Assembly: GCF_007004655.1 (NCBI RefSeq)
Contig: NZ_ML660102.1
Location: 89,854 to 153,853 of the forward strand
Origin: Exilibacterium tricleocarpae
Lineage (GTDB): Bacteria > Pseudomonadota > Gammaproteobacteria > Pseudomonadales > Cellvibrionaceae
Length of the DNA: 64,000 bases
Direction: 5' to 3'
The notes below the pieces were generated by a model. It was not told the origin of the DNA. It saw only the letters and a program-made list of their open reading frames with translations, and ran no database searches. Below are positions 20,526 through 52,196 of this stretch, in pieces. The translations under genes and the position numbers were made by a program. How positions within the stretch are numbered: the first letter of the stretch is position 1; every line of letters begins with the position of its first letter.

Positions 20526-22649
20526 TCAAAACCGGCCATCGATGGTAACGCTGAAGAAGACCCCCCTCTCGCGCCGCGTGTCCTCTCGCTGCATCAGGCT
20601 GCCGTTGCGGTTATCGGCGTAAACCAGCCGTTGCCACCGCTGGCGTTCATCACCGATATTTCTCGCCGCCAGCCGCAATTTGAAGTCGCTAAAACGCACA
20701 GTCTCGATAAACGCATTCCACCGTCCCTGCGTTCGAAAGAAGTTACTTTCGTTGACGAAGTATTCCTCACTTTCCTTATAGCTTTCATAGCCCAACCCCC
20801 AGGAAACCCCCGCTTTGCTGAAATCCTGGCGAAAATCCACCTGCACGAGCGGGCTCTCCAATTCGGTCAGCTCCCGGGTCTGTCCGGTAACCGGATCATC
20901 AAAACGGGAGTCCACAATATCAGCTTTTATTTCTACCAGGCCCTTGGGGACCAGCGGTTCCAGCGGCAGGTTGCCGCTCAATGCCAGACCGCGTACCCTG
21001 GCGCGACCGGCATTGCCAAGAGCCTGGTCACCGGAGGGGAGTACGATCTGCTCGAGAACATCCTTGCGCCACTCCTGGTAGACTTCTACGCTGAAGGCAC
21101 CTTTTGCGGCAAAACGGCGGTCAAAAGCGAGCCCGGCACGGATATTTCTCTCGGGGCGCAGTTGCGGGTTGCCGGAAAACTGCCGGTCGTTGACCAGGTC
21201 AGCGCTGGCGGCAAAATCGCTGAAATCCAACTGTCCCACCGAACGCCGCAGCGTAAAGCGATACTGCGTTTGTTCATCGTCGTTGTAAATCAGCCCCAGG
21301 GAAGGCTTCAGATAAAACAACGACTGCGCGTCGTCGCTGTCGCCTGCAACAGATATATGCGAATACTCCGCGGCCAGACCGGTCTCAACCGTCAGGCCAT
21401 ACAATTTCCAGGTCAGGTTGGTGAAAACTTCACCGCGCTGTTCGATCACCTTGGCATAGCTGTCGCGGGTATTTTCCAGGGGCCGCCCGGCGGCATCGGT
21501 GGGCCGCAACTTCAACCAGCTTTCCAGGTTGTTATAGGCCAATTCCGCACCGTATTCCTGGCGCAGAATGCCGAGCGGTTCCTGTGCCGGCACCGAGTCT
21601 TTCCTGCTGAACGCGGTGCGCAGGACATTTTCGGTTTTATGTTCGTCGAACCGCAATTGCGAGCCGCTTGCAAAAATCGACAGTGGCGCTTCGGTCCGGG
21701 AATCCGCATCCACAAACCAGTTCTGCGTATTGTTGAGGTTGATCAGCCGCCACTGCCAGCCGCCCGCCAGCGGCATGCCCCAATCAATACCCAGTTCCCC
21801 GGCATAGTATTGACTGTCGCGTTCGTTCCTAAACACGCTATCGGGGCGCCCCTCCGGCATCCGCCGGCTGTAGCCCGCGCGCTGCGTCTCCGGCATATAC
21901 CGGCTCCACCCCAAGCGGGCATTGACACTGAGTTCGCGGCGCCCGTACCGGCGGCGCGCCTCGCCGGAGAAGAAAACCTCGCCGAGAAAACTGGGGCGGT
22001 CTTCGACCTGTGTCCACAGCAATTCGTTATCCCCCGAGCGAGCCGTGATCTCGGCTTCCCGCGGTTGCCGCTCCCACATGGCATCGACTTTCAAGGCCGA
22101 CTCCCACTGCCCCAGGTGTTGGGACAGTGTCAGCTCACCCTTGGGGTAAACTTCACCATCGGCCGCCCGCTCCACCGTCAGTTGCCACCGCCTGGCGTCT
22201 GCCTGCCTGAGCCGGATCACGTTTGCCACGATAGACTGGCCGGCGGCGTCAACGGCGCCGGCCGTGCCCCGCAGCAGGTCAATCCTGCTGACCTGGAGCG
22301 CAGGAATGCGCTGCAGGGCGTCCTTTATGCCACCCGATTTCGTGGTGGGCCGGGTGCCGTCGATCAATACATTGCCGGCGCCGGCGCCAAAACCGCGGAT
22401 ATCCTCTTCCTCTTCCAGCACAAACCCGGGGAGCCGCAGGACCATATCCAGCGCGGTTTGCGGCGCGTACTCGGAAAAGAAAGCCGGCAGATAAACCTCC
22501 TCGCTGCCGCGCTCAGCGCCAGCCTGGGAACCCTGGGCACGACTCGAATCCGCACCCATCAGCAGTGCCAGGGAAACCGCCGTCATCCCGGCGACCCTAC
22601 AGGCGCGCCGCCAGGACCACGCCTGCTCCAGCGTTCTCGACATATTCAT
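20526..22649 (-). CDS. TonB-dependent outer membrane receptor, last gene of candidate metallophore operon
   Basis: A 707-residue protein with a signal peptide ending in SSRAQ, a plug region (ALDMVLRLPGFVLEEEEDIRG, NVLIDGTRPTTKSGG, IDLLRGTAGAVDAAGQSIVANV) and a long barrel ending in aromatic VFFSVTIDGRF, as outer-membrane barrels do. It starts 25 bp after the upstream receptor gene, with GGAGAG before the ATG, and so belongs to the same transcript as the ATP-grasp gene. The plug lacks the usual siderophore-receptor wording; homologs of this shape are often called simply TonB-dependent receptor. Its presence beside a second receptor suggests two ligand forms, or import plus signalling. Ligand unknown; a metal-chelate is inferred from context. 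Confidence 0.88.
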   Translation of the reverse strand: MNMSRTLEQAWSWRRACRVAGMTAVSLALLMGADSSRAQGSQAGAERGSEEVYLPAFFSEYAPQTALDMVLRLPGFVLEEEEDIRGFGAGAGNVLIDGTRPTTKSGGIKDALQRIPALQVSRIDLLRGTAGAVDAAGQSIVANVIRLRQADARRWQLTVERAADGEVYPKGELTLSQHLGQWESALKVDAMWERQPREAEITARSGDNELLWTQVEDRPSFLGEVFFSGEARRRYGRRELSVNARLGWSRYMPETQRAGYSRRMPEGRPDSVFRNERDSQYYAGELGIDWGMPLAGGWQWRLINLNNTQNWFVDADSRTEAPLSIFASGSQLRFDEHKTENVLRTAFSRKDSVPAQEPLGILRQEYGAELAYNNLESWLKLRPTDAAGRPLENTRDSYAKVIEQRGEVFTNLTWKLYGLTVETGLAAEYSHISVAGDSDDAQSLFYLKPSLGLIYNDDEQTQYRFTLRRSVGQLDFSDFAASADLVNDRQFSGNPQLRPERNIRAGLAFDRRFAAKGAFSVEVYQEWRKDVLEQIVLPSGDQALGNAGRARVRGLALSGNLPLEPLVPKGLVEIKADIVDSRFDDPVTGQTRELTELESPLVQVDFRQDFSKAGVSWGLGYESYKESEEYFVNESNFFRTQGRWNAFIETVRFSDFKLRLAARNIGDERQRWQRLVYADNRNGSLMQREDTRRERGVFFSVTIDGRF

Positions 22650-22674
22650 TGCCGGCTCTCCAATGCCTTGCCCT

Positions 22675-24942
22675 CTACTGAATCTGGTATTCGAACATCA
22701 ATCGATAGGTGCGCGGCGATCCGAGCAACAGTTGATTGGCGTAGATAAAACCGGGATCGTCCTGCTGCAAATAGAAGACATCTGCCCAGGGCACATAATC
22801 CTCATCAAACAGGTTCTCCACCCGGGCGGAAATGCGGAAGTTGTCGGCTTTCCAGGCGGAGAAGAGGTTTGTCAGGGTGTAGGATTTCAAGGTGACGGTA
22901 TTGGGGTTATCACCAAAGCGATCATCCACGTGGTGCACCGAGACCCCCACTTCCAGGGGCAGATCGGCAATGTCCTGATAACTCGTCCACAAGGCGGCCG
23001 TCCACTGCGGTACGTTCGGAGGTGTGTTGCCGGCAAGACTCTGGAAATTGGCCGAGCGCCGGAACTCGGCATTGGTGTAAGCGGCGTTAGTGCCGACCCG
23101 CCACTGTTCCGCCACTCTCATTGTCGTGGAGAACTCAACACCGCGAGAGGCGCGCCCGCCCACATTGGTAGCGCTGTCAAGTGCAAAACGTTCAAAGACA
23201 TCGTCCCGCTCGATGTCATAGTAAGCCAGCGTCGACTCCGCTTTGCCATCCAGCCAGATGGCTTTGAGGCCCACCTCCCACTGTTTGGCATCGGTTAAAT
23301 CAAAATTCTGGTTGGCATTGACCAGGAAGACGTTGGAATTGATCGGGTCCTTGGCATTGCTGTACTGGGCATAGCCGACGATATCGGGCGTAAAGTTATA
23401 GACCGCGCCGATGCGCCAACTCCACCAGCTGTATTGCCGCGAGAAACCGTTTGCTTCCTCTACGCCCTCGGCATTGAAATTGCGGCGGTCGAGGTCAAGG
23501 TTTTCGTGGCGCAGTCCGGTAACCAGGCTCAGTGTGTCGGTGACCTGCAGGGCGTTGCCGAAAAACGCCGCCAGCGTGCTGATATCCGTGGGGCTGATGC
23601 CGCGCAACTCTTCCGGGCCGTAGCGACCGGGTTCGGGGTTGAAGGCGTCTACGCCGTCACCCGGCACCTGAGCGACCCCACGCCTGAAGCCCCGGCTCCG
23701 TTCAAAATCCATATCGATGGCTTCGAGGCCGGCAACGAAGCGACTCTCCATGCCGCCGAACTGCGAATCGATGTTGACCGTCAGGCGATTGCCGAGCAAA
23801 TCCTGATCGTGATCCAACAGGAAATAACCGTAGTAGCGTTGAATTTCGCCCACTTGAGTGCAGACATCGACCACCTGCCTGCAGTACGCATAGCCTTCGG
23901 CGTTTCTCCACTCGCGATCGGCGCTGAATTGATACAAGGTATTTTTAAGCGTCATGCTGTCATTGAGTTGCCACTGGAAATCCAGGCGCAGGAACAATTG
24001 GTCAGAATCGGCGACGGCATCGTCCACGTTGTAGTTTCTAAACCGCATGGCACCGTCAAGCACTTCTCCACGGCCGGTGGAGACGACATCCAGCGGATCA
24101 CGTGCCACCTCGGCCGGCACCAGCGGTGTGCCGAAGTAACTGCCCACATCATCGCTCAGATAATCCGCGCCGAACTTCAGGGAAATGGCCTCGGTCGGCT
24201 GCCAGAGCAGGCTGCCGGTCAGGTTGGTCGATGAGCTATCGGTGCGGTCCACATAACCATCCGTATCGTAACGACTGATATCGACATTAAACCAAGCGTT
24301 TTCCCCGAGGCCGCCCTGGCTGCCCAGGCCGAGGTGTCGCGAGTCATAGCGACCGTAGCCCAACAGCAGGTTGGTGCTGCTTTCCATCCCGACTTCAGCA
24401 CTTCTGGTAATGGCGTTGACGGTTCCCGCCACCGAGCCGATACCGTTGATCACAGAGGCCGGCCCGCGCAGCACCTCGACCCGTTCGAGATTAAACGTAT
24501 TTTGCGGTCGCATGACCATGGTGCTGGGGCCGATCCACAGGCCGTCGCGCAGCACGGTAATCTGCCCCCGCGTAAAGCCGCGCACCGAGAAAGTCGACGG
24601 CGCGGTGGGATGCTCCCCGGTCACGACCCCGGGCAGGCTCTGCACGGCGTCGGAAAGTTTGCTGTAACCCCGCGCCCGCATCACGGAACCATCGATAATC
24701 TCAATGGTTGCCGGCGTTTCCAGCGCGGTCAGCCCCAGGCGACTGGCGGTGGATGACTGGTCGTTGAGCCGCAGCGAGCCGATGGGATTACCGATGATAA
24801 TCATCTCATCCTCCAATCGCTCATCGGCAATAGCATTCTTTGTGGCAGGACTCGCGGCGGCAGCGCCAATGCAAAACCCTGGCAGCGCCAACAAGCACAA
24901 AATCATACCCATGTACCTGTTATGACAGCCTGTAAAATTCAT
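22675..24942 (-). CDS. TonB-dependent siderophore-type receptor
   Basis: A 755-residue outer-membrane receptor. I start it at the ATG at 24942 (AGGGGAG upstream); the longer frame to 24975 adds residues before the signal peptide. The plug domain carries ETPATIEIIDGSVM, RARGYSKLSDAVQSLPGV, FSVRGFTRGQITVLRDGLW and VEVLRGPASVINGIGSVAG, the pattern of the siderophore receptor subfamily; the barrel ends in TYRLMFEYQIQ. It would import a metal-chelate using TonB energy. Its place behind MFS, DUF364 and ATP-grasp genes suggests it takes back the product that these genes make and export. Confidence 0.92.
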   Translation of the reverse strand: MNFTGCHNRYMGMILCLLALPGFCIGAAAASPATKNAIADERLEDEMIIIGNPIGSLRLNDQSSTASRLGLTALETPATIEIIDGSVMRARGYSKLSDAVQSLPGVVTGEHPTAPSTFSVRGFTRGQITVLRDGLWIGPSTMVMRPQNTFNLERVEVLRGPASVINGIGSVAGTVNAITRSAEVGMESSTNLLLGYGRYDSRHLGLGSQGGLGENAWFNVDISRYDTDGYVDRTDSSSTNLTGSLLWQPTEAISLKFGADYLSDDVGSYFGTPLVPAEVARDPLDVVSTGRGEVLDGAMRFRNYNVDDAVADSDQLFLRLDFQWQLNDSMTLKNTLYQFSADREWRNAEGYAYCRQVVDVCTQVGEIQRYYGYFLLDHDQDLLGNRLTVNIDSQFGGMESRFVAGLEAIDMDFERSRGFRRGVAQVPGDGVDAFNPEPGRYGPEELRGISPTDISTLAAFFGNALQVTDTLSLVTGLRHENLDLDRRNFNAEGVEEANGFSRQYSWWSWRIGAVYNFTPDIVGYAQYSNAKDPINSNVFLVNANQNFDLTDAKQWEVGLKAIWLDGKAESTLAYYDIERDDVFERFALDSATNVGGRASRGVEFSTTMRVAEQWRVGTNAAYTNAEFRRSANFQSLAGNTPPNVPQWTAALWTSYQDIADLPLEVGVSVHHVDDRFGDNPNTVTLKSYTLTNLFSAWKADNFRISARVENLFDEDYVPWADVFYLQQDDPGFIYANQLLLGSPRTYRLMFEYQIQ

Positions 24943-24999
24943 GGTGTAACTCCCCTTGAAGTAGTGCTGAACCAATGCCGGGCGTTTAAGCGCCCGGGT

Positions 25000-26223
25000 T
25001 TATTGTGTTTGTGAAAGCAAGTTGGTTTTATCGCTTGCAGTGGTCCCGGTCAGCCAATACAGGCCCGCCGCACTCAGCAGGCCGACGGCGCAGTAAACCA
25101 GCCAGGGCAGCATCAACAGTTGCTGGGTTTTGGCGATATCGATCAACAAGCCGCCGATGGCGTTGCCCAATCCGCCGCCAACCGCCAGTCCCAGTGAACT
25201 GAAGCCGAGATACGTGCCCAGCGATTTACCGTCAGCCAACGCAGCCGTGATTGTTTGTTGGGTGGGTCGCGTCAACAAAACACCGAGGGTAAAAAACACG
25301 ACACAGATAAGGAAAGCGTAAAACTGCTCTACAAATCCGATCGCACCGAGACTCAGTGCCATGGTGACCACACCGATCGTCAAAATTTCCCGGGTATCGA
25401 ATCGACGTTCAGCCAGTTTTACCAGCGGATACTGCAAAGCGACGGTAATGGCGGCGCTGACGGCATACATAATGCCCACGCTTTCCTGAATACCGGACAA
25501 TTTCTCCGCCCACAGTGGAAAACTGATATTCACCTGCACGGAAGTAAACCAGTACCCGCCCATCAAGCCGGTGAAGAAAACAAAGCGGCGGTCGTGCAAT
25601 ACGCCCTTGAGGTTGGCGGCCGGCGCCTGGGTGGCACCGGGCGTGGTGACGCGGGGAAGAAAGAACAGCGAGATCAGGTAATTCACAAAAAAGCAGGCGG
25701 CCGCACCATAACATACCGATTGAAAATCAAACTGCAAAAGTGCAATCCCGATCAGCGGTCCTATAGTCGAAGCGATGCCGCTGACCCAGTTGCTGACCAG
25801 GTAATAGTGGCGGCGGTTGGTATCGTCGGTAAGCGCCACTATAGTGGCCTGGTAAGGTGCCTCGAACAAAGCACCTCCGAGCGCCGATATCACCAGGGCC
25901 AGGATCAGCAACAGCGGATCACCGGCCCAGGCCAGCGCGGCAAAGCCCAACGCCCTGACCAGCACGCCGGCGCAAATCATGGGTTTGGCACCCAGCTTAT
26001 CCGACAATAAACCGCCGGCCACTGTCAGCCCCTGTTGGGTCAACTGGCGCACAGCAAGGGCGATGCCCACCGTCGCGGAACTCATGCCAACGTTACTGAC
26101 AAAATGCACTGCCACCAATGGCATTAACATAGTGAAACCGAGCACCATTAAGAACGTGTAAAACAACAGTGCTCTCAGGCCCTGCCGGTCAGACAGCGCC
26201 AGGTGCGGCTGCGCTACCTTCAC
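25000..26223 (-). CDS. MFS transporter, probable exporter of the cluster product
   Basis: A 407-residue major-facilitator protein with 12 predicted helices and the loop 2-3 motif GGLLSDKLGAKPMICAGVLV. MFS pumps in metallophore clusters (for example PvsC for vibrioferrin) export the finished chelator, and this is the inferred role here. The ATG overlaps the stop of the DUF364 gene by 4 bp, and the receptor gene follows after 57 bp. Drug or sugar efflux cannot be excluded from sequence alone. Confidence 0.88.
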   Translation of the reverse strand: MKVAQPHLALSDRQGLRALLFYTFLMVLGFTMLMPLVAVHFVSNVGMSSATVGIALAVRQLTQQGLTVAGGLLSDKLGAKPMICAGVLVRALGFAALAWAGDPLLLILALVISALGGALFEAPYQATIVALTDDTNRRHYYLVSNWVSGIASTIGPLIGIALLQFDFQSVCYGAAACFFVNYLISLFFLPRVTTPGATQAPAANLKGVLHDRRFVFFTGLMGGYWFTSVQVNISFPLWAEKLSGIQESVGIMYAVSAAITVALQYPLVKLAERRFDTREILTIGVVTMALSLGAIGFVEQFYAFLICVVFFTLGVLLTRPTQQTITAALADGKSLGTYLGFSSLGLAVGGGLGNAIGGLLIDIAKTQQLLMLPWLVYCAVGLLSAAGLYWLTGTTASDKTNLLSQTQ

Positions 26224-27059
26224 GGGTTCGCAGCCCGGTACAGATAGATGGCGGTCGGGTCGGCACTGAACTGCGAATAGGGAAAAGGTTCTGCCGAAAC
26301 AGCACTGACACCTTGCCCCAAAAAACGTGGCACAATGGCACTGCCGGTTTGCGCATAAACCACCAGGGGGATGTTTCGACGTCTGGCGGCCGCCAGGATT
26401 TCATCGAAAGAGCCATTGCTCAGGGTCATACCCGTGGCGATAATAAAGTCCGCCTGCTCCAGCACCGGGCGCATATCCCGCTGCACAACCAGCCCGCCGG
26501 CAGTGCGCTGCATATTAAAATCACAGGGCAGGCAACGGGCACCGCGCGCCTCGATCGCCTGGACAATAGGGTTGACGACGCCGATCAGCCCTACGGCCTG
26601 GTCGGGCTCAATAGCCAGCAGACTGACAATCGCTTTATCGCGCGCTACCGCCCGCGTAAACGGCGTGCCGTAGGGCAGCTCCAGCTCCCGGGCGCGATGG
26701 TCATCTCGATGAGGTAATACCACCCCCAAATAGGCATCGAGAGCGGCGACTCTGACGGGCAATCGAGCATCTTCCAGCAACGCGGCCAGCGATTGGCCGA
26801 CCAACTCACGCGCGGCCACCTGCTCAAGTTGTTCGGCCTCGACGCAGCAGCCGCCGAACACCGCATTTACCCGCAGCAACAGGTAATAGTTGCGATACTT
26901 CTGCTCGGTCCCGGGAAACTGCGTGCTCTGATCGATCTCGAAGGCACCCACCACCGGCAGTTCGCGCGGATCGATACCGAAGTGCCGCTGCAGGACACAG
27001 TCGATAAGCTGGTCAACGGTTTTGAAAGACTCGGCTGATGCGCTTGCATTGGCGGTCAT
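26220..27059 (-). CDS. DUF364-like protein with Rossmann-type C-terminal domain (putative heavy-metal chelation family)
   Basis: A 279-residue soluble protein. The C-terminal half (about residues 135-260) has the DUF364 pattern: AVGLIGVVNPIVQAIEARGA, then DFIIATGMTLSNGSFDEIL, then IPLVVYAQTGSAIVP. The N-terminal half corresponds to the enolase-N-like DUF4213 region. This family has been annotated as putative heavy-metal chelation, but no reaction is established as far as I know. The gene overlaps both neighbours by 4 bp (ATP-grasp upstream, MFS downstream), so it is an integral part of the pathway. A role in tailoring or binding the chelator is an inference. Confidence 0.75.
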   Translation of the reverse strand: MTANASASAESFKTVDQLIDCVLQRHFGIDPRELPVVGAFEIDQSTQFPGTEQKYRNYYLLLRVNAVFGGCCVEAEQLEQVAARELVGQSLAALLEDARLPVRVAALDAYLGVVLPHRDDHRARELELPYGTPFTRAVARDKAIVSLLAIEPDQAVGLIGVVNPIVQAIEARGARCLPCDFNMQRTAGGLVVQRDMRPVLEQADFIIATGMTLSNGSFDEILAAARRRNIPLVVYAQTGSAIVPRFLGQGVSAVSAEPFPYSQFSADPTAIYLYRAANP

Positions 27060-28348
27060 CGATGAACTCCCTTCGGTGGTGACTGGTCGGCGGCTTCGCT
27101 GTACAAGAGACGCAATTCACTCAGTGCCTGTTCAGCGAAACACCGCGCCTGATCGCCTTCGGAGTCCCGGCTGATGACATGCCCCAGGTAGCAGGCATTG
27201 TCGATGGGTGCTGCGATTTTCATGTCGCTCACGGCGGCTAGTCGCCAGCGCACGAGATTAGGATTTTGTTGCAGTTTTTCACCACCCTCGAGCGCCTTGA
27301 GAACACCTGCCGCGGGCGGCACGAGAAACTTAACGGCGGCGCTGCCGCGACAGTGTTCCAGACCGTCCAGGGCGGGCTGGCGATTCAGCGCCAGGTTGAC
27401 ATGGGTTTCCAGCAGGTCGATTCCCGTGACCAGTTGAATCAGTTCGGCGATAAAGTTACCGCCAGGTCTGGGGTTGATCTCGACCAGACGCGGACCCGCC
27501 GGGGTAAGTTTGACCTCTGTGTGACTGATGCCGTGATCGTGACCGACAGCCTCTAACGCCTGGGTGACATAAGTCGTGACCGCCTCGGCCAGCCCTGCTT
27601 CCAGGCGGGCGGGAAACATATGGCCGTCCTCAATAAAGTAGGGAAAACCGGTGAGGGACTTGTCGGTGATACCCACGATGGTGGTCTCTCCCTGAAATGT
27701 CACCGCCTCGACACTCACCTCATCGCCTTGCATAAATTCTTCCAGCAACCACAGGGCGTCTCGTGCCTGGCCGCGAAAGTTGTGGGTAAATGCCTGCAAC
27801 TCCGTAAAGCCCTCCCGCAGTTGCGCCTCGCTGTCAATCAGTTTGACAAAAGCACTGGAGGCGAGATCACAGGGCTTGAGAACCAGCGGATAACCAATGC
27901 GGTCTGCCGCCGCCACTGTCTCCGTCCAGTCGCTGGTAACCGCAAACTTCGGGTTCTGTATACCGGCGCGCTGTAATGCCTGCCGCACCAGGTGCTTGCG
28001 CCGCTCCAGGACCACATTGGACGAGAAGGCCTGGGGCAGGTCGAGTGCCTGCGCTACCTGAGCCACGGTGTCGACGTAGTAATCACAAATGGTCGATACA
28101 CCATCGAAATGCAGCAGCCGATGCTGGGCCCGCAGTTGTTCGATCAACGCGTCAATATCGTTGGTCTCAAGCGTCAGGATATTTTCCGCGTATTCGAAAA
28201 TGGGATGCATCTGCGGCGATTTTTTATCGACATAGTGATCTTTGTTGCGGGTAACAAACGTGTAGGTGTGGCCGAGCCGGCGGATAGTGGCGGGAAACAG
28301 ACGCCCGGTCCCCTCGACCCAGTTCTCAATAATCAGTAAATGCGCCAT
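27056..28348 (-). CDS. ATP-grasp ligase (carboxylate-amine ligase), first gene of candidate metallophore operon
   Basis: A 430-residue ATP-grasp enzyme. The ATP site is visible as PLVLKPCDLASSAFVKL (Lys), DALWLLEEFMQGDEVSVEAV, and the Mg-binding HTEVKLTPAGPRLVEINPRP. Enzymes of this class activate a carboxylate as acyl-phosphate and join it to an amine; examples are PvsA of vibrioferrin and DdaF-type dapdiamide ligases. In this operon it would form the amide bond of a small product built from the amino acid made by the divergent kinase/PLP pair. The start lies 67 bp from a perfect Zur-like palindrome. Substrates are not predictable from sequence. Confidence 0.88.
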   Translation of the reverse strand: MAHLLIIENWVEGTGRLFPATIRRLGHTYTFVTRNKDHYVDKKSPQMHPIFEYAENILTLETNDIDALIEQLRAQHRLLHFDGVSTICDYYVDTVAQVAQALDLPQAFSSNVVLERRKHLVRQALQRAGIQNPKFAVTSDWTETVAAADRIGYPLVLKPCDLASSAFVKLIDSEAQLREGFTELQAFTHNFRGQARDALWLLEEFMQGDEVSVEAVTFQGETTIVGITDKSLTGFPYFIEDGHMFPARLEAGLAEAVTTYVTQALEAVGHDHGISHTEVKLTPAGPRLVEINPRPGGNFIAELIQLVTGIDLLETHVNLALNRQPALDGLEHCRGSAAVKFLVPPAAGVLKALEGGEKLQQNPNLVRWRLAAVSDMKIAAPIDNACYLGHVISRDSEGDQARCFAEQALSELRLLYSEAADQSPPKGVHR

Positions 28349-28414
28349 GTGGATATTCAGCTCCTGTGAATGGTGGCACCCAATCTATCTCAGGCCCTTC
28401 CTCTTTTGTTTTTA

Positions 28415-28432
28415 CTTATGTTATAACATAAC
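28415..28432. promoter_or_regulatory. Zur-like palindrome in the bidirectional promoter of the candidate metallophore cluster
   Basis: TTATGTTATAACATAA (28416-28431) is a perfect 16-bp palindrome. Its core ATGTTATAACAT is the core of proteobacterial Zur boxes as I know them. It lies in the only gap (146 bp) between the two divergent operons, 67 bp from the ATP-grasp start and 63 bp from the kinase start, so one repressor could silence both. Compared with GATATGTTATAACATATC it matches 15 of 18 bases. Confidence 0.7.
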
Positions 28433-28494
28433 ACTAACAAGATAACCGCTCAACCTCTCATTCTTCACAGGCTGGCGCACAGGCAATCCCAATC

Positions 28495-29403
28495 ATGCTG
28501 ACGCTTACAGATCAAACCGCTACAGGCGGTGACCCCGGCACTCATATCGGCGTCTGCAGAGGCGCTCTGGGAGAGCTGTATCAGGGCTTGTCAGCACACA
28601 CTAACGATGAAATCGCCATAGTGTCGTCTTTGATTCCCAAATACAGTTGGGCTTACTTTACGCCGGACAACGGCCCCGAAGCCGGCAACAGAGAGGTGTT
28701 ACTGGAAACGCCGGGCCGTTGTAAATCCTTTCGCGCTCTGGACATTTACTGCCGATTGAAACGGCGGGCCTGGCCTGCAGGCAGGTGGCGGTTTAAGAGC
28801 GATCTACAAGTGGCGCGGGGTATGGCCAGCTCCACGGCGGATATCGTGGCGACGATACGATGCGCGGCGAGTTATTTCCGCCAGCCGGCCAGTACCGGCG
28901 ACATTATCCAGGTGCTTTCCCAAATTGAACGCTCGGACAGTGTGTTTCTCGATCACCCCGTCCTGTTTTGCAGTTCGCGGCATCGGGTGCTGCGAGAGTT
29001 TGAAAAGGTACCGCCGATATATGCGCTGTATATGCACGAGGCAGACAAGGTTGAAACCGAAGGCACCAAGGGCAAGCTGGTGGACTACTACCGGCAACAC
29101 AAACGCCACTACCTCGACTTGTCCCGGCACATGGAGCAGGCGTTGCGGACAAAAAATATCGCCGAAATATGCAGCGTATCCACCATGAGCTCCGAATTGT
29201 CACAGGAAATTTTACCCAAGCAGCACTTTCATGCGGTTTATCGAGCGATGCAGCACTGCAAGGCCGACGGTGTGATCACCGCCCACACAGGGTCGGTAAT
29301 CGGTTTGCTCTTTCGCCGCCCCCCGGACATACACTGCCTGGCATCGGTCGGCCGGCTTTTTAACGAGTTGGGCGGCCACTGCCAGTACACGGAGATAGGC
29401 TAA
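28495..29403 (+). CDS. GHMP-family kinase, L-threonine/L-serine kinase (PduX)-like
   Basis: A 302-residue GHMP kinase. The N-terminal GELYQG segment and the ATP-loop SDLQVARGMASSTADIVA near residue 103 are the family marks; PduX-type enzymes phosphorylate free L-threonine. The C-terminal part has GVITAHTGSVIGLLF (third motif, weaker). In this setting it would supply O-phospho-L-threonine or -serine to the PLP enzyme encoded 1 bp downstream (stop and start overlap in TAATG). It is first in a three-gene operon divergent from the ATP-grasp gene. A cobalamin role (PduX proper) is less likely because no cob genes are near. Confidence 0.82.
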   Translation: MLTLTDQTATGGDPGTHIGVCRGALGELYQGLSAHTNDEIAIVSSLIPKYSWAYFTPDNGPEAGNREVLLETPGRCKSFRALDIYCRLKRRAWPAGRWRFKSDLQVARGMASSTADIVATIRCAASYFRQPASTGDIIQVLSQIERSDSVFLDHPVLFCSSRHRVLREFEKVPPIYALYMHEADKVETEGTKGKLVDYYRQHKRHYLDLSRHMEQALRTKNIAEICSVSTMSSELSQEILPKQHFHAVYRAMQHCKADGVITAHTGSVIGLLFRRPPDIHCLASVGRLFNELGGHCQYTEIG

Positions 29404-30455
29404 TGATTTTTCCGCACATATCAGATGCACTTAAAACACCGGCCATAGTCCATTTAAGAGACAATTTGTATTTGGCCCGCTTTGAGTCGATGAAAATCTA
29501 TTCTACGCTCGCCGCGGTAAAAGAGCTGTTGGCGCGCGGACAAATCGGCCCACAGGATACGCTGCTGGACAGTTCCAGCGGCATTTATGCCTACGCCCTG
29601 GCCCTGGCCTGCCATAAATACGGACTGCGGTGTCATATCATCGCCTCGAAAACCGTAGACCCCACCTTGAAGTTGCAGTTGGAGTTGATGGGGGCGGTGG
29701 TGGAACCCGCGGCCTCGGCACCCAATTTGAAAATGGATCAGCAAAATCGGGTCAAACGTATTGAAGAAATCCTGCGCACCCGTCCCGATGTGCACTGGAT
29801 GCAGCAGTACCACGACGATATCCACTATCTGGGATATCGGGAATTTGCCGAACTGCTGGCGGGCGATTTTAACACGGAAAAAATTACGCTGGTCGGCGGC
29901 GTCGGCTCAGGGTGCTCCACTGGTGCCACAGCCAGCTTTTTGAGAGCCATGAACATCGATACCACACTGCATGGCGTACAACCGTTTGGCAGCGTTACGT
30001 TTAACTCGCAACATGTGGACGACCCCGATATCATCATTGCCGGCATCGGCAGCGCCATTCCCTTTAGAAATGTACACTATGACTTATATGATTTCATTCA
30101 CTGGATTTCGTTTTCACACAGCCGCAGCGGCTCGGTGGAGTTGCTGAAAAACTACGGCGTCTTCGCCGGCTTGTCCGCCGGCTCCTGTCACACGGTAGCT
30201 CACTGGTGCCGGCAACTCGATCCGGATCAACCTTGTGTGTTTATAGCTGCGGACCTGGGTTACCGCTATCTGCACGCAGTTTATGAACAATATCGGGAAT
30301 CGGCGGGCGTCGCCTCGCTCCAGCCGACAATGATTCAGTCGTTCGACGAGATGCACCTGCACTGGTGCTGTATGCACTGGCAACGCAGATGTGATCCGGG
30401 TGCGGCGCCGGGTCGCGTCGCGACGGCGATACAAGCAACGGCGCCAGCAGTATGA
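29403..30455 (+). CDS. Fold-type II PLP enzyme, SbnA/cysteine-synthase-like
   Basis: A 350-residue PLP protein. The Schiff-base Lys is expected in RFESMKIYSTLAAVKELL near residue 30. The substrate loop reads DSSSGIYAYALALA, where CysK/SbnA relatives have SGN, so the Asn that contacts the cofactor is replaced by Ile. The phosphate loop is VGSGCSTGATASF and the C-terminal loop FAGLSAGSCH. In staphyloferrin B synthesis SbnA makes a diaminopropionate precursor from O-phosphoserine; with the GHMP kinase directly upstream an analogous beta-replacement on O-phospho-Ser/Thr giving a 2,3-diamino acid is a reasonable inference. The last 45 residues (after MHLHWCC) are low in family resemblance. Confidence 0.82.
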   Translation: MIFPHISDALKTPAIVHLRDNLYLARFESMKIYSTLAAVKELLARGQIGPQDTLLDSSSGIYAYALALACHKYGLRCHIIASKTVDPTLKLQLELMGAVVEPAASAPNLKMDQQNRVKRIEEILRTRPDVHWMQQYHDDIHYLGYREFAELLAGDFNTEKITLVGGVGSGCSTGATASFLRAMNIDTTLHGVQPFGSVTFNSQHVDDPDIIIAGIGSAIPFRNVHYDLYDFIHWISFSHSRSGSVELLKNYGVFAGLSAGSCHTVAHWCRQLDPDQPCVFIAADLGYRYLHAVYEQYRESAGVASLQPTMIQSFDEMHLHWCCMHWQRRCDPGAAPGRVATAIQATAPAV

Positions 30456-30475
30456 TTGTGTGAGTACCCGACACT

Positions 30476-31669
30476 ATGCCACTGACTCCAAGCGCTGATA
30501 ACGCGCGCCTGCCCGTCCTGGATATCATGCGGGGCTTTGCCCTGTGCGGTATCATTTTTGCGAACCTGATGAGCTTTACCGGCTTTTACTCGCTGAATCT
30601 GTCCGCCATACAACAACTGCCATGGGCAGACAGGATCACCCTGTTCTTGATCGACTGGCTTATAGAGGGGAAATTTTACACGGTTTTCTCAATCCTGTTG
30701 GGCGCCGGCTTCGCTTTGCAACTGGCGCGTTATTCCGGTCGCGAAGCCCGGTTTCGCGCCTTTTGGCGCCGGCGTATGCTGGTGCTTATGGCGATCGGCC
30801 TGCTCCATATGTTTCTCATCTGGCACGGGGATATCCTGACGCTCTACAGCGTCCTCGGACTGTGCCTGCTGTGGTTTACCGGCCTTGCTGCCAGGCAGCT
30901 ACTATTTGCTATCGTTATACTGCTGGCCCTGCCGCTCGCCATCCATGGGTTGTTGCTGGTAAGCATCGAACACAGCTTCTGGTCACTGCTCCGTCGCGCC
31001 GTCGATGCGCTGAAGCTTCAATTGGGATACAACGACGCGACGCTGCTGGCGCTGCGCACCTCTCCAAACAGTGCCGACGTTTTCTTTGCCAATGTGTTCA
31101 GCGCCATCCCGCGCCCGATGGCCTATCTGCAAACCGGTCGCCCCTTCCAGGTGCTGGGACAGTTTTTACTGGGTGTGTACCTGGCGCGGCATTTTCTGCT
31201 GGCCGAACGCCCGCCGGCGCTACCGAGTCGCAGCACCGTGCTGCAACTGATGATCGGCGGACTGGTTTTAAGCGCCATCTACGCGGGCATCAAGGCCGCC
31301 ACCGGCAGCCCATTCACGATAAATGGCCTGGGCCTGTTCCAGGGTGTTGTCTATCATACCGGGGCCACCCTGTTAGCCCTCGGCTATATGGGTATAATCG
31401 CCCGGTTGTGTCAAGCGCAAACACGACGGCCGATTCACAAGCTGGCCGTGCTGGGACGCCTGTCCCTGAGTCAATATCTGCTGCAAACGTCGTTATGCGT
31501 CTTGCTGTTTTACGGCTATGGCTTGAGCCTGATGGGCCAGGTGCCGTTCGTCGCCATCACCATCTTTGGTGCGGGCATTTTGGCCTTGCAATATTTCTGG
31601 GGAAAGTACTGGTTGACCCGCCACGCACAGGGTCCGATGGAGTGGTTGTGGCGCAAGTTGAGCAGGTAG
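30476..31669 (+). CDS. DUF418/YeiB-family membrane protein
   Basis: A 397-residue inner-membrane protein with about 10 predicted helices. The N-terminus LPVLDIMRGFALCGIIFANL and the GKFYTVFSILLGAGFALQL segment are characteristic of the DUF418/YeiB group, a branch of the acyltransferase-3-like membrane proteins; RRMLVLMAIGLLHMFLIWHGDIL follows. The molecular function is not established. It lies 20 bp downstream of the PLP gene and closes the plus-strand operon. It could acylate or move the product, but this is speculation. Confidence 0.85.
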   Translation: MPLTPSADNARLPVLDIMRGFALCGIIFANLMSFTGFYSLNLSAIQQLPWADRITLFLIDWLIEGKFYTVFSILLGAGFALQLARYSGREARFRAFWRRRMLVLMAIGLLHMFLIWHGDILTLYSVLGLCLLWFTGLAARQLLFAIVILLALPLAIHGLLLVSIEHSFWSLLRRAVDALKLQLGYNDATLLALRTSPNSADVFFANVFSAIPRPMAYLQTGRPFQVLGQFLLGVYLARHFLLAERPPALPSRSTVLQLMIGGLVLSAIYAGIKAATGSPFTINGLGLFQGVVYHTGATLLALGYMGIIARLCQAQTRRPIHKLAVLGRLSLSQYLLQTSLCVLLFYGYGLSLMGQVPFVAITIFGAGILALQYFWGKYWLTRHAQGPMEWLWRKLSR

Positions 31670-31715: not shown

Positions 31716-32957
31716 CTACTGAACCATTCTCGCACTCTTGTATATATTTAACGAGGGCACAGCTGCTGCTACCGCCGTGGCCATGACAACTGTCAATAGT
31801 AAATAAAAAACACTTGCTGACATAATGTTGGACTGAATATACAAACCATAACCGGAGGCTAAATAATCCCCGGCGGCAATCAGACATATATATAGCAATA
31901 AAACGCCGACTAAAGTGCTGACCAGAGTGATCAGCAACGCCTCTAACTCTATCAACAGAAACAGGTATGTGGGTGAAGCGCCAATCACTCTGAGAAGTTG
32001 AACTTCGCGACTACGCTCCCGAATCGACGCCAACAACATAGCGCTCAGCCCTAATAGGGCCGCGATAAGGATAAGTACCGACACTAAGCGAAGTGTATTC
32101 TCCAGCACTTTCATCATTTGCCAAAGCTCCGACAACGCGACGCCGGGCAGTATCGCCAGCATGGGTTCCTTTGCATAATTATTGATATCTCTCTGTACCC
32201 GAAACGTAGCCACGCGAGATTTCAGTCCCAGCATAAACGCCGTAACGGTTTTCGGCTTGAGTTCGAGCTGCTCAATCTCATCTGCAGTGATATCACTCCC
32301 CGGCACTTTTACACCTTGCCGCCAGTCGATATGGATGGCCTCAATACCTTCCAAACCAACGTGCAGCGTCTGGTCGACGGGTGTTCCTGTGGGCTCTAAA
32401 ATACCGACGACCGTAAATGGACGGTCATCGTGCAGGCTAAAGCTGGTACTGGCGATACCATGGGACAAAACCAGCTTCTCCCCCAATGAGTAACCGAGCT
32501 TTTTGGCCACATCAGAACCTATTACAACATCAAACACGCTGCTGAAGACCCGACCTTTATCAAAGCTCAGGCTGTGCCGATTGCCATAGCTGAAGAACTC
32601 GAAATAATCTCGAGTGGTTCCCATCACACGATAGCCTTTATGTGAATCACCAAGCGCAATAGGAATGGCCCATTTGACCTGTGGATTGGAAACAATATCC
32701 TCGAAAGATTCCCAGCGAATGTTATTCGTGGGAGAGCCTATGCGAAATACTGAATACAGCAATAGATTGAGGCTGCCCGTTCTGGCACCAACGATAAGAT
32801 CAACACCGGAAACGGTATTGGCAAAACTATCCTTGGCCTGATAACGGATGTGTTCCACTGCCAATAAAACAAAAATACTGATGGTCATGGCCATCAGCGT
32901 GAGAATTGCCGAGCCTTTACGATTAAGCAGACTTTTTACCGCCAGCTTCATAAACAT
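31716..32957 (-). CDS. FtsX/MacB-type ABC transporter permease
   Basis: A 413-residue protein with one N-terminal helix (LTLMAMTISIFVLLAVEHI), a large periplasmic domain and three C-terminal helices, the MacB/LolC topology. The FtsX domain shows LLASIRERSREVQLLRVIGA. It overlaps the ATPase gene by 1 bp. The set ATPase + FtsX permease + DUF3299 lipoprotein + DUF2796 recalls the zinc-repressed PA4063-PA4066 group of Pseudomonas aeruginosa. Mechanistic role (zinc uptake support, envelope remodelling or export) is not settled. Confidence 0.88.
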   Translation of the reverse strand: MFMKLAVKSLLNRKGSAILTLMAMTISIFVLLAVEHIRYQAKDSFANTVSGVDLIVGARTGSLNLLLYSVFRIGSPTNNIRWESFEDIVSNPQVKWAIPIALGDSHKGYRVMGTTRDYFEFFSYGNRHSLSFDKGRVFSSVFDVVIGSDVAKKLGYSLGEKLVLSHGIASTSFSLHDDRPFTVVGILEPTGTPVDQTLHVGLEGIEAIHIDWRQGVKVPGSDITADEIEQLELKPKTVTAFMLGLKSRVATFRVQRDINNYAKEPMLAILPGVALSELWQMMKVLENTLRLVSVLILIAALLGLSAMLLASIRERSREVQLLRVIGASPTYLFLLIELEALLITLVSTLVGVLLLYICLIAAGDYLASGYGLYIQSNIMSASVFYLLLTVVMATAVAAAVPSLNIYKSARMVQ

Positions 32958-33637
32958 CAGCCGTCTCCGGTTAAACAGTTAATATCGGATAGCGCGTCAA
33001 TTCGCGTGAAATAGCCAGACAGCGACATATCGTGGCTGACCAATACTAACGTGATATCGTAGGCGGTGACCAACGGCAGCAGTGTGGACATAAAATTATC
33101 GCGATTATCTTGATCAAGGGACGAAGTGGGTTCATCTGCTATCAACAACCGAGGTTTATTGATAAGTGCTCGCGCGATTGCTACCCGTTGTTGCTGTCCG
33201 AAACTGAGTTTAGTGGCCTGTTTATATCGGGCATCGGGCGATATGTTTAATTTTGTCAAAAGCTCCTCTACCTCATCTTCCCTGGCATTTGCTCTTTGGT
33301 GTTTTGAAAACTGCGTGGCTAATAGAACATTTTCCATTGCATTTAAATAGGGGATTAAATTGAACTGCTGAAACACGTAGCCAATCTGATTGGCTCGAAA
33401 CCGATCACGTTGCCGCTGGTTCATTTTATCCAGGCGCTTACCGAGGATTGACAATTCCCCCCCGGTAGGAGCGACTAAACCGCTGAGAAGATTGAGTAAG
33501 GTGGATTTTCCGCCCCCGGAGGGACCATGAATAAATACCTGTTCCCGAGGCTCTACAGTCCAGCTTGGGATATTGAGCACCGGCTTATCCGGCATATCGG
33601 GATAGGCAAAATGTACCTTATTAAGACTGATGGTCAT
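32957..33637 (-). CDS. ABC transporter ATP-binding protein (MacB/LolD class)
   Basis: A 226-residue ATPase. Walker A is GPSGGGKSTLLN near residue 39, the Q-loop YVFQQFNLIPYL, the signature LSFGQQQRVAIARAL, Walker B LLIADEPTSSLD and the H-loop VLVSHD. I start it at the ATG at 33637 (MTISLNKVHF); the longer frame to 33682 would run into the Zur-like box and adds unconserved residues. It partners with the FtsX-type permease that overlaps its stop. Confidence 0.93.
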   Translation of the reverse strand: MTISLNKVHFAYPDMPDKPVLNIPSWTVEPREQVFIHGPSGGGKSTLLNLLSGLVAPTGGELSILGKRLDKMNQRQRDRFRANQIGYVFQQFNLIPYLNAMENVLLATQFSKHQRANAREDEVEELLTKLNISPDARYKQATKLSFGQQQRVAIARALINKPRLLIADEPTSSLDQDNRDNFMSTLLPLVTAYDITLVLVSHDMSLSGYFTRIDALSDINCLTGDG

Positions 33638-33679
33638 AACTTTGCCGGCGGGAGACTCCAGAGGGCAGATTGCAAAACA

Positions 33680-33702
33680 CAAATGTTGCAGTGTATCATT
33701 TC
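33680..33702. promoter_or_regulatory. Zur-like box between the ABC pair and the DUF3299 gene
   Basis: A 23-bp element with AAATG and CATTT ends (33681-33685 and 33697-33701). It matches the enterobacterial Zur consensus, as I recall it, at 17 of 23 bases. It is 43 bp from the ATPase start and 41 bp from the DUF3299 start, so it can serve both divergent promoters. Confidence 0.55.
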
Positions 33703-33743: not shown

Positions 33744-34427
33744 ATGAATACTATGTATCAATTGATCATCGGACTACTGGTGATGATATCCCTGAATGCT
33801 TGCGATAACACGGGCCCGCCGGAACAACTCCCGGGTGTAGCTGATCCGGAAGACAACATTCAGGAGGCATTTTTTAAACTGGGTGAGAAAGAAAAACCGA
33901 TAGCCCACATCGCCGCCGGGAAAAAGCTACCTAAGAGCGCGTTTAAAACAATCGAATGGACTGATCTGATGCCTAAAGAGGACTTGGATGCCCTACTAAA
34001 TCCGCCTGGCTATGTCACCGATATCGAAGACGGTTCTGTTGAAGAGCAGATCAGCAGTCAAATTCAGAATACCATCGCCGCGGCGAGTGACGACCGCTAC
34101 CAACAAGCACTCGTATCCACCCGCGTGGTCCCTAAAATGAACGGGCAGGCAATTCGAATCCCCGGCTTTATCGTACCTTTGGAATTTGATGATGAACAGA
34201 CTATTACCCAGTTCTTTTTAGTACCATTCTTCGGTGCGTGCATTCATTTGCCACCGCCACCACCCAATCAAATAGTCTTTGTCGACTACCCCGAAGGCCT
34301 AAAACTTACAGCGTTGTATGACCCGTTTTGGGTTTCCGGCGTTGTGGAAACCTCTTTAACTGAAAATGATATCGCGACAGCAGCATACTCGTTAAAAATG
34401 CAGTATTTTGAAGAATATACAGACTAG
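33744..34427 (+). CDS. DUF3299 lipoprotein
   Basis: A 227-residue envelope protein with a lipobox (LVMISLNAC) at residues 12-20. The DUF3299 core is seen from about 130: the QAIRIPGFIVPLEF segment, then TQFFLVPFFGACIHLPPPPPNQIVFVDY, and VSGVVETSLTENDIATAAY at the end. A single Cys-His pair (GACIHLPPPPPNQ) is the notable conserved spot. It is the counterpart of PA4066-type genes that accompany zinc-repressed ABC systems. Expression is probably from the Zur-like box 41 bp upstream. Function unknown; a periplasmic metal-handling role is inferred from neighbours. Confidence 0.85.
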   Translation: MNTMYQLIIGLLVMISLNACDNTGPPEQLPGVADPEDNIQEAFFKLGEKEKPIAHIAAGKKLPKSAFKTIEWTDLMPKEDLDALLNPPGYVTDIEDGSVEEQISSQIQNTIAAASDDRYQQALVSTRVVPKMNGQAIRIPGFIVPLEFDDEQTITQFFLVPFFGACIHLPPPPPNQIVFVDYPEGLKLTALYDPFWVSGVVETSLTENDIATAAYSLKMQYFEEYTD

Positions 34428-49619: not shown

Positions 49620-49639
49620 ATGTCCAGACTAATGGACAT
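49620..49639. promoter_or_regulatory. arsR operator
   Basis: ATGTCCA-GACTAA-TGGACAT is a perfect inverted repeat directly upstream of the arsR start. Further GACAT/ATGTC half-sites lie at 49649-49675, giving a multi-site operator. Confidence 0.6.
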
Positions 49640-49737
49640 GTTTTAATATGTCAATAGTTATCGACATGTTTATAGGCTGACGGTATTAAGAGAGAGGGAC
49701 AGTTAGGTGTGACATTGTATGTTAGCCAGCACAACTC

Positions 49738-51749: not shown

Positions 51750-51790
51750 GACAATGATCCATATCCATACACAGGCTTTAGCATAAAAAA

Positions 51791-51808: not shown

Positions 51809-51879
51809 TTTAATAAGAAAAAGTATAGGGAGAATAACAGGCATCATCGACCAGTCCACTCGTTCACTGTTTAAACAAG

Positions 51880-52188: not shown

Positions 52189-52196
52189 ATAACAAT

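What the first reader, a model, noticed from the sequence alone, without database searches (positions are those of the whole stretch)
20526..31669. Candidate zincophore system: GHMP kinase, PLP enzyme, ATP-grasp ligase, DUF364, MFS pump and two TonB receptors around one Zur-like palindrome
Seen: two divergent operons of overlapping genes share one 146-bp promoter with a perfect 16-bp palindrome whose core is that of a Zur box. Established: SbnA-type enzymes use O-phosphoserine to make diaminopropionate precursors, PduX-type kinases make O-phosphothreonine, ATP-grasp ligases build amides, and MFS plus TonB receptors export and reimport chelators. Inferred: together they make, export and retrieve a small chelator built on a 2,3-diamino acid, made when zinc is short. 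No NRPS, NIS (IucA/C) or nicotianamine-type synthase is present, so it would not be one of the classes I know. DUF364 inside the operon is the unusual part.
Basis: partly seen in the sequence, partly recalled or inferred. Interest (0 to 1): 0.93.

Follow-up and report, generated by a model that had tools for sequence, protein, structure and literature searches.

The report
New kind of zinc-scavenging gene cluster
Eight neighbouring genes share a promoter that carries a site like that of the zinc-starvation switch Zur, and relatives of the set in several distant bacterial groups carry sites like their own groups' Zur sites, so the set is predicted to make, export and take back a small zinc-binding molecule by a likely undescribed route.

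Summary
In detail: eight genes at 20526-31669 diverge from a 146-bp promoter with a Zur-type box. The 15-bp pattern is exact at three places in the 7.18-Mb genome; a one-mismatch copy lies between zur and znuA. Among 80 named loci of this DUF364 subfamily an SbnA/cysteine-synthase-like PLP gene is nearby in 77, and a Zur-type box of the host lineage's kind precedes a cluster gene in 45 of 69 loci examined (Bacillota 10/16, Actinomycetota 24/33, Proteobacteria 11/17, Herpetosiphon 0/3). Uptake genes follow the host: TonB receptors in Gram-negatives, Opp-type or FecCD-type ABC importers in Gram-positives. In Massilia, ATP-grasp and DUF364 are fused. Counter-evidence: one Bacillaceae locus has perfect Fur boxes; Massilia, Vibrio and Herpetosiphon promoters show no Zur box. 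No nicotianamine-synthase, NRPS or NIS domain was found in the 30 window proteins scanned. The likely product is a small chelator started by PLP beta-substitution, with DUF364 as signature enzyme; chemistry and zinc binding are untested, and EDDS/EDHA genes could not be compared. ZrgA, DUF1826 and DUF3526-ABC genes and four more Zur-like sites lie in the same window: a zinc-acquisition island.

The parts
28414..28433 (.). Zur-type operator in the shared divergent promoter (15-mer core 28419-28433; 16-bp palindrome 28416-28431)
   Evidence: 18 of 20 positions of the published E. coli Zur motif TRWNAYRWTATAWYRTNWCA; exact 15-mer at 3 places in the genome, one-mismatch copy between zur and znuA
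27056..28348 (-). ATP-grasp amino-acid ligase (ATP-grasp_4 + LAL_C2)
   Evidence: best solved relative L-amino acid ligase BL00235, 3vot, E 1.9e-26
26220..27059 (-). DUF364 enzyme (PF04016), predicted core biosynthetic enzyme
25000..26223 (-). MFS transporter, MdtH-like, predicted exporter of the chelator
   Evidence: 47-62% identical MFS next to DUF364 in Gram-negative relatives and Herpetosiphon
22675..24942 (-). TonB-dependent siderophore-type receptor A, predicted importer of the metal complex
   Evidence: TIGR01783 260 bits, cut-off 223.5; 64-66% identical receptor in the same place in L027, L033, L038
20526..22649 (-). second TonB-dependent receptor B
   Evidence: 48-49% identical receptor in the same place in L033 and L038
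28495..29403 (+). GHMP-superfamily kinase, predicted to phosphorylate a hydroxy-amino acid for the PLP enzyme
   Evidence: fold agrees; substrate unknown
29403..30455 (+). SbnA/cysteine-synthase-like PLP enzyme, predicted beta-substitution step
   Evidence: best solved relative SbnA 5d87/5d84; TIGR03945 117 bits, below its cut-off 350; Lys31 invariant in 21 aligned sequences
30476..31669 (+). DUF418 (YeiB-like) membrane protein, role unknown
   Evidence: a DUF418 paralogue elsewhere in the genome also has an exact box just upstream
31716..32957 (-). MacB/FtsX-type ABC permease beside the cluster
32957..33682 (-). ABC ATPase, partner of the permease
33744..34427 (+). DUF3299 protein
   Evidence: PF11736 168 bits
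34488..37916 (-). ABC-2 transporter: two DUF3526 permeases (34488-35744, 35737-37191) and ATPase (37188-37916)
   Evidence: DUF3526 ABC genes sit in the relatives' clusters in Lysobacter and Massilia
38072..38644 (-). ZrgA family zinc uptake protein
   Evidence: PF10986 158.7 bits against cut-off 27.4; NCBIfam ZrgA 102 bits, below cut-off 185
38675..39364 (-). DUF1826 protein
   Evidence: PF08856 215 bits
39760..39779 (.). second Zur-like site upstream of DUF1826-ZrgA-ABC genes
   Evidence: 2 mismatches to the published motif
49634..49653 (.). Zur-like site near a TonB-barrel ORF (49960-51327)
   Evidence: 2 mismatches
51790..51809 (.). Zur-like site between the TonB-barrel ORF and the 52548-58550 operon
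   Evidence: 2 mismatches
52196..52215 (.). Zur-like site before the 52548-58550 operon
   Evidence: 2 mismatches
52548..58550 (+). TonB receptor + ABC ATPase + two DUF3526 permeases, a second set of the kind found in Lysobacter clusters

Best explanation
This is a gene cluster with a Zur-type operator in its shared promoter that is predicted to make, export and retrieve a small zinc-binding molecule (a zincophore) by a route whose signature would be a DUF364 enzyme paired with an SbnA-like PLP enzyme. Predicted steps: when zinc is short, Zur would leave the operator and both divergent operons would be transcribed. The GHMP kinase would make an O-phospho-amino acid (serine or threonine type); the PLP enzyme would replace the phosphate by the amine of a second amino acid, giving a 2,3-diamino acid or aminopolycarboxylate; DUF364 would carry out the defining second modification or condensation; the ATP-grasp ligase would add an amino acid through an amide bond (only in the non-actinobacterial versions). 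The MFS protein would export the product and the TonB receptors would bring back the zinc complex; in Gram-positive relatives an Opp-type or FecCD-type ABC importer would do so. Shown by calls: gene content, Zur-type boxes in three phyla, DUF364-PLP pairing, ATP-grasp-DUF364 fusion, lineage-matched importers. Inferred: every enzymatic step, zinc binding, Zur binding, direction of transport.
For: Own genome: exact 15-mer at three places only, here, just before a DUF418 paralogue and just before a TonB receptor; a one-mismatch copy lies in the 64-bp gap between a Fur-family gene (best NCBIfam hit Zur, below cut-off; ZnuC and ZnuB genes behind it over cut-off) and znuA. Five distinct Zur-like sites in this window; none of 100 shuffles reaches the count. 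Other phyla: TCGTAATNATTACGA (B. subtilis type, recalled) at up to 2 mismatches before the ATP-grasp gene in 10 of 16 Bacillota loci, 100 permuted half-sites mean 0.04, max 1; TGAAAATGATTTTCA (Streptomyces type) at up to 2 mismatches in 26 of 33 actinobacterial loci, 40 permuted versions mean 0.025, max 1, 24 of them within 450 bp before a cluster-type gene, with similar boxes at znuA in 7 of 9 actinobacterial genomes searched; published E. coli motif at up to 2 mismatches in 11 of 12 proteobacterial promoters, 7 of them perfect, 100 permuted motifs max 2. The PLP gene is within reach of DUF364 in 77 of 80 loci; MFS in 59, TonB receptor in 22, SBP_bac_5 in 25, FecCD/SBP2 in 25. The kinase is near in 42 of 57 loci with the window-type PLP enzyme and 0 of 20 with the SbnA-type one, as expected if it feeds the PLP enzyme. 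In five of five Massilia loci one reading frame covers ATP-grasp and DUF364 (domains confirmed in L036). Annotated plasmid records show compact cassettes of importer, DUF364, kinase, PLP and MFS. ZrgA, DUF1826 and DUF3526-ABC genes lie beside the cluster.
Against: Bacillaceae SAS-127 has two perfect Fur boxes before the cluster while its znuA has a Zur box. Five of five Massilia loci have no Zur box; their palindromes of GATAAT/ATTATC half-sites fit no consensus I scored. Vibrio intestinalis and three Herpetosiphon loci show no Zur box. 6 of 16 Bacillota and 9 of 33 actinobacterial loci miss the threshold or position. The metal could differ by lineage. The two Lysobacter and two Massilia genomes searched, and Aliikangiella, have no ZnuA hit, so their boxes could not be checked against znuA. 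No enzyme is close enough to a characterised one to fix its reaction: the PLP protein is below the SbnA equivalog cut-off, the kinase has no sequence match among solved structures, DUF364 has no known reaction. Related sequences are not independent samples, and permuted motifs do not correct for that. No expression or metabolite data exist here.
Confidence: 0.76

Rival explanations
1. A member of the known aminopolycarboxylate metallophores (EDDS or EDHA type): Zur- or iron-controlled, SbnA-like start, already detected by genome-mining rules, with DUF364 as an unnoticed accessory.
For: EDDS genes were found through Zur sites and EDHA is reported as a four-gene cluster AesA-D (passages; reference titles); antiSMASH 7 has a rule for aminopolycarboxylic acid metallophores. 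The PLP enzyme here is SbnA-like.
Against: No Pfam hit to an SbnB/ornithine-cyclodeaminase or argininosuccinate-lyase domain in the 30 window proteins scanned. That such enzymes belong to EDDS synthesis is recalled, not read; the aes sequences were not compared.
Confidence: 0.14
2. A metallophore for another metal (iron, nickel, cobalt or several), with Zur control only in some hosts.
For: Perfect Fur boxes in Bacillaceae SAS-127; no Zur box in Massilia, Vibrio and Herpetosiphon; Opp-type and FecCD importers also serve nickel and iron chelates in general (recalled).
Against: Zur-type boxes precede a cluster gene in 45 of 69 loci examined, in three phyla.
Confidence: 0.12
3. A dipeptide-type antibiotic or signal built by the ATP-grasp ligase (bacilysin/dapdiamide style), exported by the MFS pump, with zinc-starvation control used as a competition cue.
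For: The ligase's closest solved relatives are L-amino acid ligase BL00235 and BacD; NCBIfam shows a weak dapdiamide synthase match.
Against: The ligase is missing from all 33 actinobacterial loci; importer genes are in or beside many loci, which an antibiotic does not need; zinc-uptake genes surround the window cluster.
Confidence: 0.06
4. No secreted molecule: a zinc-sparing intracellular pathway (for example a cofactor side-route with a PduX-like kinase) placed in the Zur regulon, the transporters being unrelated neighbours.
For: Zur regulons contain zinc-sparing genes (established knowledge, not from a call); JGI names relatives of the kinase 'involved in propanediol utilization'.
Against: An MFS gene and a lineage-matched importer recur with the enzymes in different phyla; that is not expected for an internal pathway.
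Confidence: 0.06

Closest known systems
Opine-like zincophores (staphylopine, pseudopaline, bacillopaline; CntKLM with import and export genes)
   Same: Amino-acid-derived chelator expected, MFS exporter, TonB receptor in Gram-negatives and SBP_bac_5/Opp-type importer in Paenibacillus-type relatives, sometimes a methyltransferase
   Different: No nicotianamine-type synthase or opine dehydrogenase domain in the 30 window proteins scanned; instead PLP enzyme + DUF364 (+ kinase, ATP-grasp)
SbnA (with SbnB), 2,3-diaminopropionate route of staphyloferrin B
   Same: Best solved relative of the PLP enzyme; lysine of the SIKDR-type motif conserved
   Different: Below the SbnA equivalog cut-off; no SbnB and no NIS synthetase domain in the window proteins scanned; the NPGG-type loop before the lysine is shortened in the window-type enzymes
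EDDS and EDHA aminopolycarboxylates (AesA-D)
   Same: EDDS is Zur-linked; SbnA-like chemistry (recalled)
   Different: DUF364 and GHMP kinase here; aes sequences not compared
Coelibactin (Streptomyces, Zur-controlled)
   Same: Zur-controlled predicted zincophore (passages)
   Different: Non-ribosomal peptide product; no NRPS domain in the window proteins scanned
DUF364 structures 3l5o and 3npg
   Different: 12-17% identity; no reaction is known and no Zur link was in the passages seen
Zrg zinc uptake system (ZrgA) and DUF1826
   Same: ZrgA, DUF1826 and ABC genes lie beside the cluster
   Different: A separate uptake system by position, not part of the biosynthetic set

Membership tests
Zur-regulated zincophore system (functional class) | Zur operator at the promoter of the biosynthetic genes | tested here: met
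   sequence match only; binding itself not tested
Zur-regulated zincophore system (functional class) | exporter and importer genes in the cluster | tested here: met
   MFS and TonB receptors; MFS 59 of 80 loci, importers of three types
Zur-regulated zincophore system (functional class) | secreted product that binds zinc | not testable with these tools
   needs metabolite analysis
Opine-like metallophores (CntL/CntM) | nicotianamine-type synthase and opine dehydrogenase beside the transporters | tested here: not met
   no such Pfam domain in the 30 window proteins scanned, 20526 to 63823; rest of the genome not scanned
NRPS or NIS siderophores | NRPS modules or IucA/IucC-type synthetase beside the transporters | tested here: not met
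   none in the 30 window proteins scanned; rest of the genome not scanned
SbnA equivalog (TIGR03945) | score over the curated cut-off 349.95 | tested here: not met
   117.3 bits
EDDS/EDHA aminopolycarboxylate clusters | homologues of AesA, AesB, AesC and AesD | not tested
   aes sequences not available to the calls made; four-gene definition from passages
DUF364 (PF04016) | profile score over cut-off and the family's fold | tested here: met
PduX-type L-threonine kinase | orthology to PduX and threonine phosphorylation | tested here: inconclusive
   GHMP fold only; no solved-structure sequence match; the PduX link is a source's name for relatives
L-amino acid ligase (LAL) ATP-grasp enzymes | ATP-grasp core plus LAL_C2 domain | tested here: met
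   75.8 and 49.7 bits, both over cut-off; 3vot

The most novel reading that the evidence does not exclude
DUF364 of this subfamily is the signature enzyme of a new biosynthetic class of zincophores, found across Proteobacteria, Actinomycetota, Bacillota and Chloroflexota and spread by horizontal transfer, in which a PLP enzyme and DUF364 replace the nicotianamine-synthase/opine-dehydrogenase pair, and which plugs into whatever uptake machinery the host's envelope needs.
Probability: 0.6. Interest if true: 0.92.

Novelty: new variant of a known kind. Interest (0 to 1): 0.85.

Why it matters
Few biosynthetic classes of bacterial zincophores are described. If true, this adds a compact one, gives an orphan fold solved in 2010 (DUF364) a first concrete biological role, and supplies a genome-mining handle (PLP + DUF364 + lineage-typical Zur box): a scan of one genome per species confirmed 324 stretches encoding this DUF364 subfamily. 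The product would be testable by zinc-starved culture and mass spectrometry in cultivable Streptomyces, Paenibacillus or Lysobacter relatives.

Tried and rejected
Fur control as the general rule: rejected as general, kept for one Bacillaceae locus. Massilia: the GATAATGCATTATC site lies at the cluster in 3 of 5 genomes and at two more places in one of them, one before a TonB receptor and one at a contig edge; scored against consensus, the Massilia promoters are 5-8 mismatches from the Fur 19-mer, 3-6 from the Fur 15-mer and 4-5 from the Zur 15-mer, so their regulator is left open.

A first scan for boxes upstream of the kinase gene in Lysobacter-type loci found nothing; the operon turned out to start with a TonB receptor outside the fetched stretch, and the promoters there gave the boxes. 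Eight of the 19 loci of that group were not followed to their promoters (L023, L028, L029, L030, L032, L034, L035, L040) and three short MAG contigs (L056, L058, L076) were not tested; these 11 of 80 are left out of the 69. In one search actinobacterial loci were scanned whole (26 of 33); one search then asked for position: 24 have a box within 450 bp before a cluster-type gene, one of these (L080) only before a more distant ABC gene; L086 and L089 have boxes 479-900 bp before one.
Full report
What is there. The window holds two divergent gene strings around a 146-bp intergenic stretch (28349-28494). Leftward: ATP-grasp/LAL_C2 ligase, DUF364, MFS, TonB receptor A, TonB receptor B. Rightward: GHMP kinase, SbnA-like PLP enzyme, DUF418. 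The stretch carries TGTTATAACATAACA and a perfect 16-bp palindrome; the 20-mer around it fits the published E. coli Zur motif TRWNAYRWTATAWYRTNWCA (PMC6103462, passages seen) at 18 of 20 positions.

The box in its own genome. The pattern TGTTATANNATAACA occurs exactly at three places in 7.18 Mb: here, within 40 bp before a DUF418 paralogue (C4) and within 40 bp before a TonB receptor (C10). A one-mismatch copy lies in the 64-bp gap between a Fur-family gene and znuA on C15; that Fur-family protein scores best against NCBIfam Zur (105.5 bits, below the 167 cut-off), and the genes behind it are over the cut-offs for ZnuC and ZnuB. So the genome's own Zur box is indicated by position, and the cluster has the same kind. 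At up to two mismatches the 15-mer is not enriched genome-wide over the reversed control (31/32 against 43/52), and the 20-mer about twofold (15/15 against 9/7 strand matches), so weak sites elsewhere mean little; three other one-mismatch sites have no zinc gene that I could see. Inside this window, however, five distinct 20-mer sites occur (ten strand matches) where 100 shuffles give a mean of 0.37 and at most 3.

A zinc island. Next to the cluster lie DUF3299, a MacB-type ABC pair, a DUF3526 ABC-2 transporter, ZrgA ('zinc uptake protein') and DUF1826, with a Zur-like site at 39760; a second TonB receptor + DUF3526 ABC operon at 52548-58550 has sites at 51790 and 52196 before it. DUF3526 ABC genes also sit in the relatives' clusters in Lysobacter and Massilia.

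Relatives. A scan of one genome per species confirmed 324 stretches encoding the DUF364 subfamily; the best 80 loci were kept with up to 10 kb on each side. They come from Lysobacter and allies, Massilia, Aliikangiella, Microbulbifer, Vibrio, Herpetosiphon, Paenibacillus/Cohnella/Saccharibacillus, Streptomyces, Kribbella and others. In those stretches (tblastn E at most 1e-12) a PLP gene of the window type (57) or of an SbnA-like type (20) is present in 77 of 80; the three misses are a DUF364 at a contig edge (L023) and two short contigs (L058, L076). An MFS gene is found in 59, ATP-grasp in 43, GHMP kinase in 42, a methyltransferase in 17, TonB receptors in 22, SBP_bac_5 in 25 (two of them weak, 23-24%), FecCD/SBP2 in 25 (a cruder earlier count is). 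The kinase accompanies 42 of 57 window-type PLP genes and none of 20 SbnA-like ones; the ATP-grasp gene is in 43 of 47 non-actinobacterial loci and 0 of 33 actinobacterial ones. In all five Massilia loci one reading frame covers ATP-grasp and DUF364, confirmed by Pfam in L036: a fusion that ties the two enzymes together. In Paenibacillus L052 the order is ATP-grasp, DUF364, methyltransferase, SBP_bac_5, two permeases, dual ABC ATPase, PLP, MFS; in Streptomyces L092 it is kinase, box, PLP, DUF364, MFS, FecCD, ATPase, SBP. Two annotated plasmid records, Streptomyces melanogenes and Tsukamurella tyrosinosolvens, carry the set as compact cassettes with a kinase and three-mismatch Zur-like sites before them. 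In the samples searched, 1 of 390 genomes of the window's order has the PLP gene (E at most 1e-60) and 1 of 369 of its class has the DUF364 gene (E at most 1e-40), both times the own genome: a patchy distribution that suggests transfer.

Zur boxes across phyla. Bacillota: TCGTAATNATTACGA (recalled consensus) with at most two mismatches lies between 300 bp before and 75 bp after the ATP-grasp start in 10 of 16 loci, against a mean of 0.04 and a maximum of 1 for 100 permuted half-sites. Actinomycetota: TGAAAATGATTTTCA with at most two mismatches lies in 26 of 33 loci, against a mean of 0.025 and a maximum of 1 for 40 permuted versions; in 24 it lies within 450 bp before a cluster-type gene. The published S. 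coelicolor motif is tGaNNatSatNNtCa (PMC5472717, passages). In 7 of the 9 actinobacterial genomes searched the znuA stretch carries TGAAAATGA[G/C/T]TGTCA (L140-L146, L148), close to TGAAAATGATTGTCA before several clusters. Proteobacteria: of 12 promoters examined (own, L027, L033, L038 and eight TonB-receptor promoters of Lysobacter-type operons) 11 are within two mismatches of the published motif and 7 are perfect; 100 permuted motifs reach at most 2 of 12. The twelfth, L033, fits the 15-mer at one mismatch. In sum, apart from the window itself, 45 of 69 loci examined.

Against. Bacillaceae SAS-127 has two perfect Fur boxes, while znuA of the same genome has a Zur box. The five Massilia loci have palindromes of GATAAT/ATTATC half-sites before the kinase and before the receptor, Fur-like by eye, but 5-8 mismatches from the Fur 19-mer and 4-5 from the Zur 15-mer. 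Vibrio intestinalis and the three Herpetosiphon loci show no Zur box near the start. No ZnuA was found in the two Massilia and two Lysobacter genomes and in the Aliikangiella genome searched. So the molecule may serve iron or several metals in some hosts.

Enzymes. PLP enzyme: best solved relatives SbnA, then mostly cysteine and cystathionine synthases; Lys31, Ser57-Gly60 and glycines 170 and 174 are invariant in 21 sequences including two Paenibacillus SbnA-like ones, with the loop before the lysine shortened in the window type. ATP-grasp: nearest solved relative L-amino acid ligase BL00235. DUF364: model with pLDDT 92.8 matches 3l5o and 3npg; 53 invariant positions in 24 sequences, none a lysine. 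[quoted passage not shown] Kinase: GHMP fold with the GMASSTAD motif conserved; substrate open.

Mechanism. The reading that fits best is a zincophore: kinase and PLP enzyme build a 2,3-diamino acid or aminopolycarboxylate, DUF364 completes it, ATP-grasp decorates it outside actinobacteria, MFS exports, TonB receptor or ABC importer retrieves. The absence of the kinase where the PLP enzyme is SbnA-like fits a division in which SbnA-like enzymes take O-phosphoserine from primary metabolism while the window-type ones need their own phospho-substrate; this is inference.

Known or not. Opine-like zincophores need CntL and CntM (PMC7438024, passages); neither, nor NRPS or NIS domains, was seen in the 30 window proteins scanned. 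antiSMASH 7 has rules for aminopolycarboxylic acid and opine-like metallophores (PMC10320115, passages). EDDS genes were found through Zur sites in Amycolatopsis japonicum and EDHA is described with AesA-D (PMC12161575 and PMC10702961, passages); the original papers were not available, and whether aes genes include DUF364 is the main open question about novelty. I therefore file this as a new variant of a known kind (zincophore systems), with the bold reading that it is a new biosynthetic class.

Noticed in passing
window 39361-39780 (-): An ORF between DUF1826 and the second Zur-like site has a sub-threshold CobW match (14.2 bits, cut-off 20.7); it may be a degraded COG0523-type GTPase, a usual partner of DUF1826 in Zur regulons (recalled).
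   Followed up: partly
window 52548-58550 and 49960-51327: A second TonB receptor + ABC + two DUF3526 operon and a TonB-barrel ORF without a plug hit, with three Zur-like sites around them.
   Followed up: partly
G000:C4:443756 (L109) and G000:C10:82258 (L108): The other two exact Zur boxes of the genome lie before a DUF418 paralogue and before a TonB receptor, so DUF418 proteins seem tied to zinc starvation here.
   Followed up: partly
G000:C11:160709 (L182): A perfect match to the published 20-mer Zur motif begins about 30 bp before a TonB receptor gene.
   Followed up: partly
L036, L037, L042, L043, L062: Massilia versions fuse ATP-grasp and DUF364 in one frame, carry unexplained GATAAT/ATTATC palindromes, and in L036 HlyD and RND genes follow the MFS gene.
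   Followed up: partly
L040: The record is named 'Bacillus sp. 2B10' but the locus resembles the Sphingomonas MAG locus L039 closely in gene order and identities; probably a mislabelled or mixed assembly.
   Followed up: no
L041, L046, L047: Herpetosiphon promoters carry a repeated TTATTGAGACTNAGTATTATTAT-like element of unknown regulator.
   Followed up: no
L201 (NZ_LR134468.1): A Tsukamurella tyrosinosolvens plasmid carries the cassette with a three-mismatch Zur-like site before it.
   Followed up: partly
window 62049-63823: HTH + HipA pair (HipBA-type toxin-antitoxin) at the window's right end.
   Followed up: no
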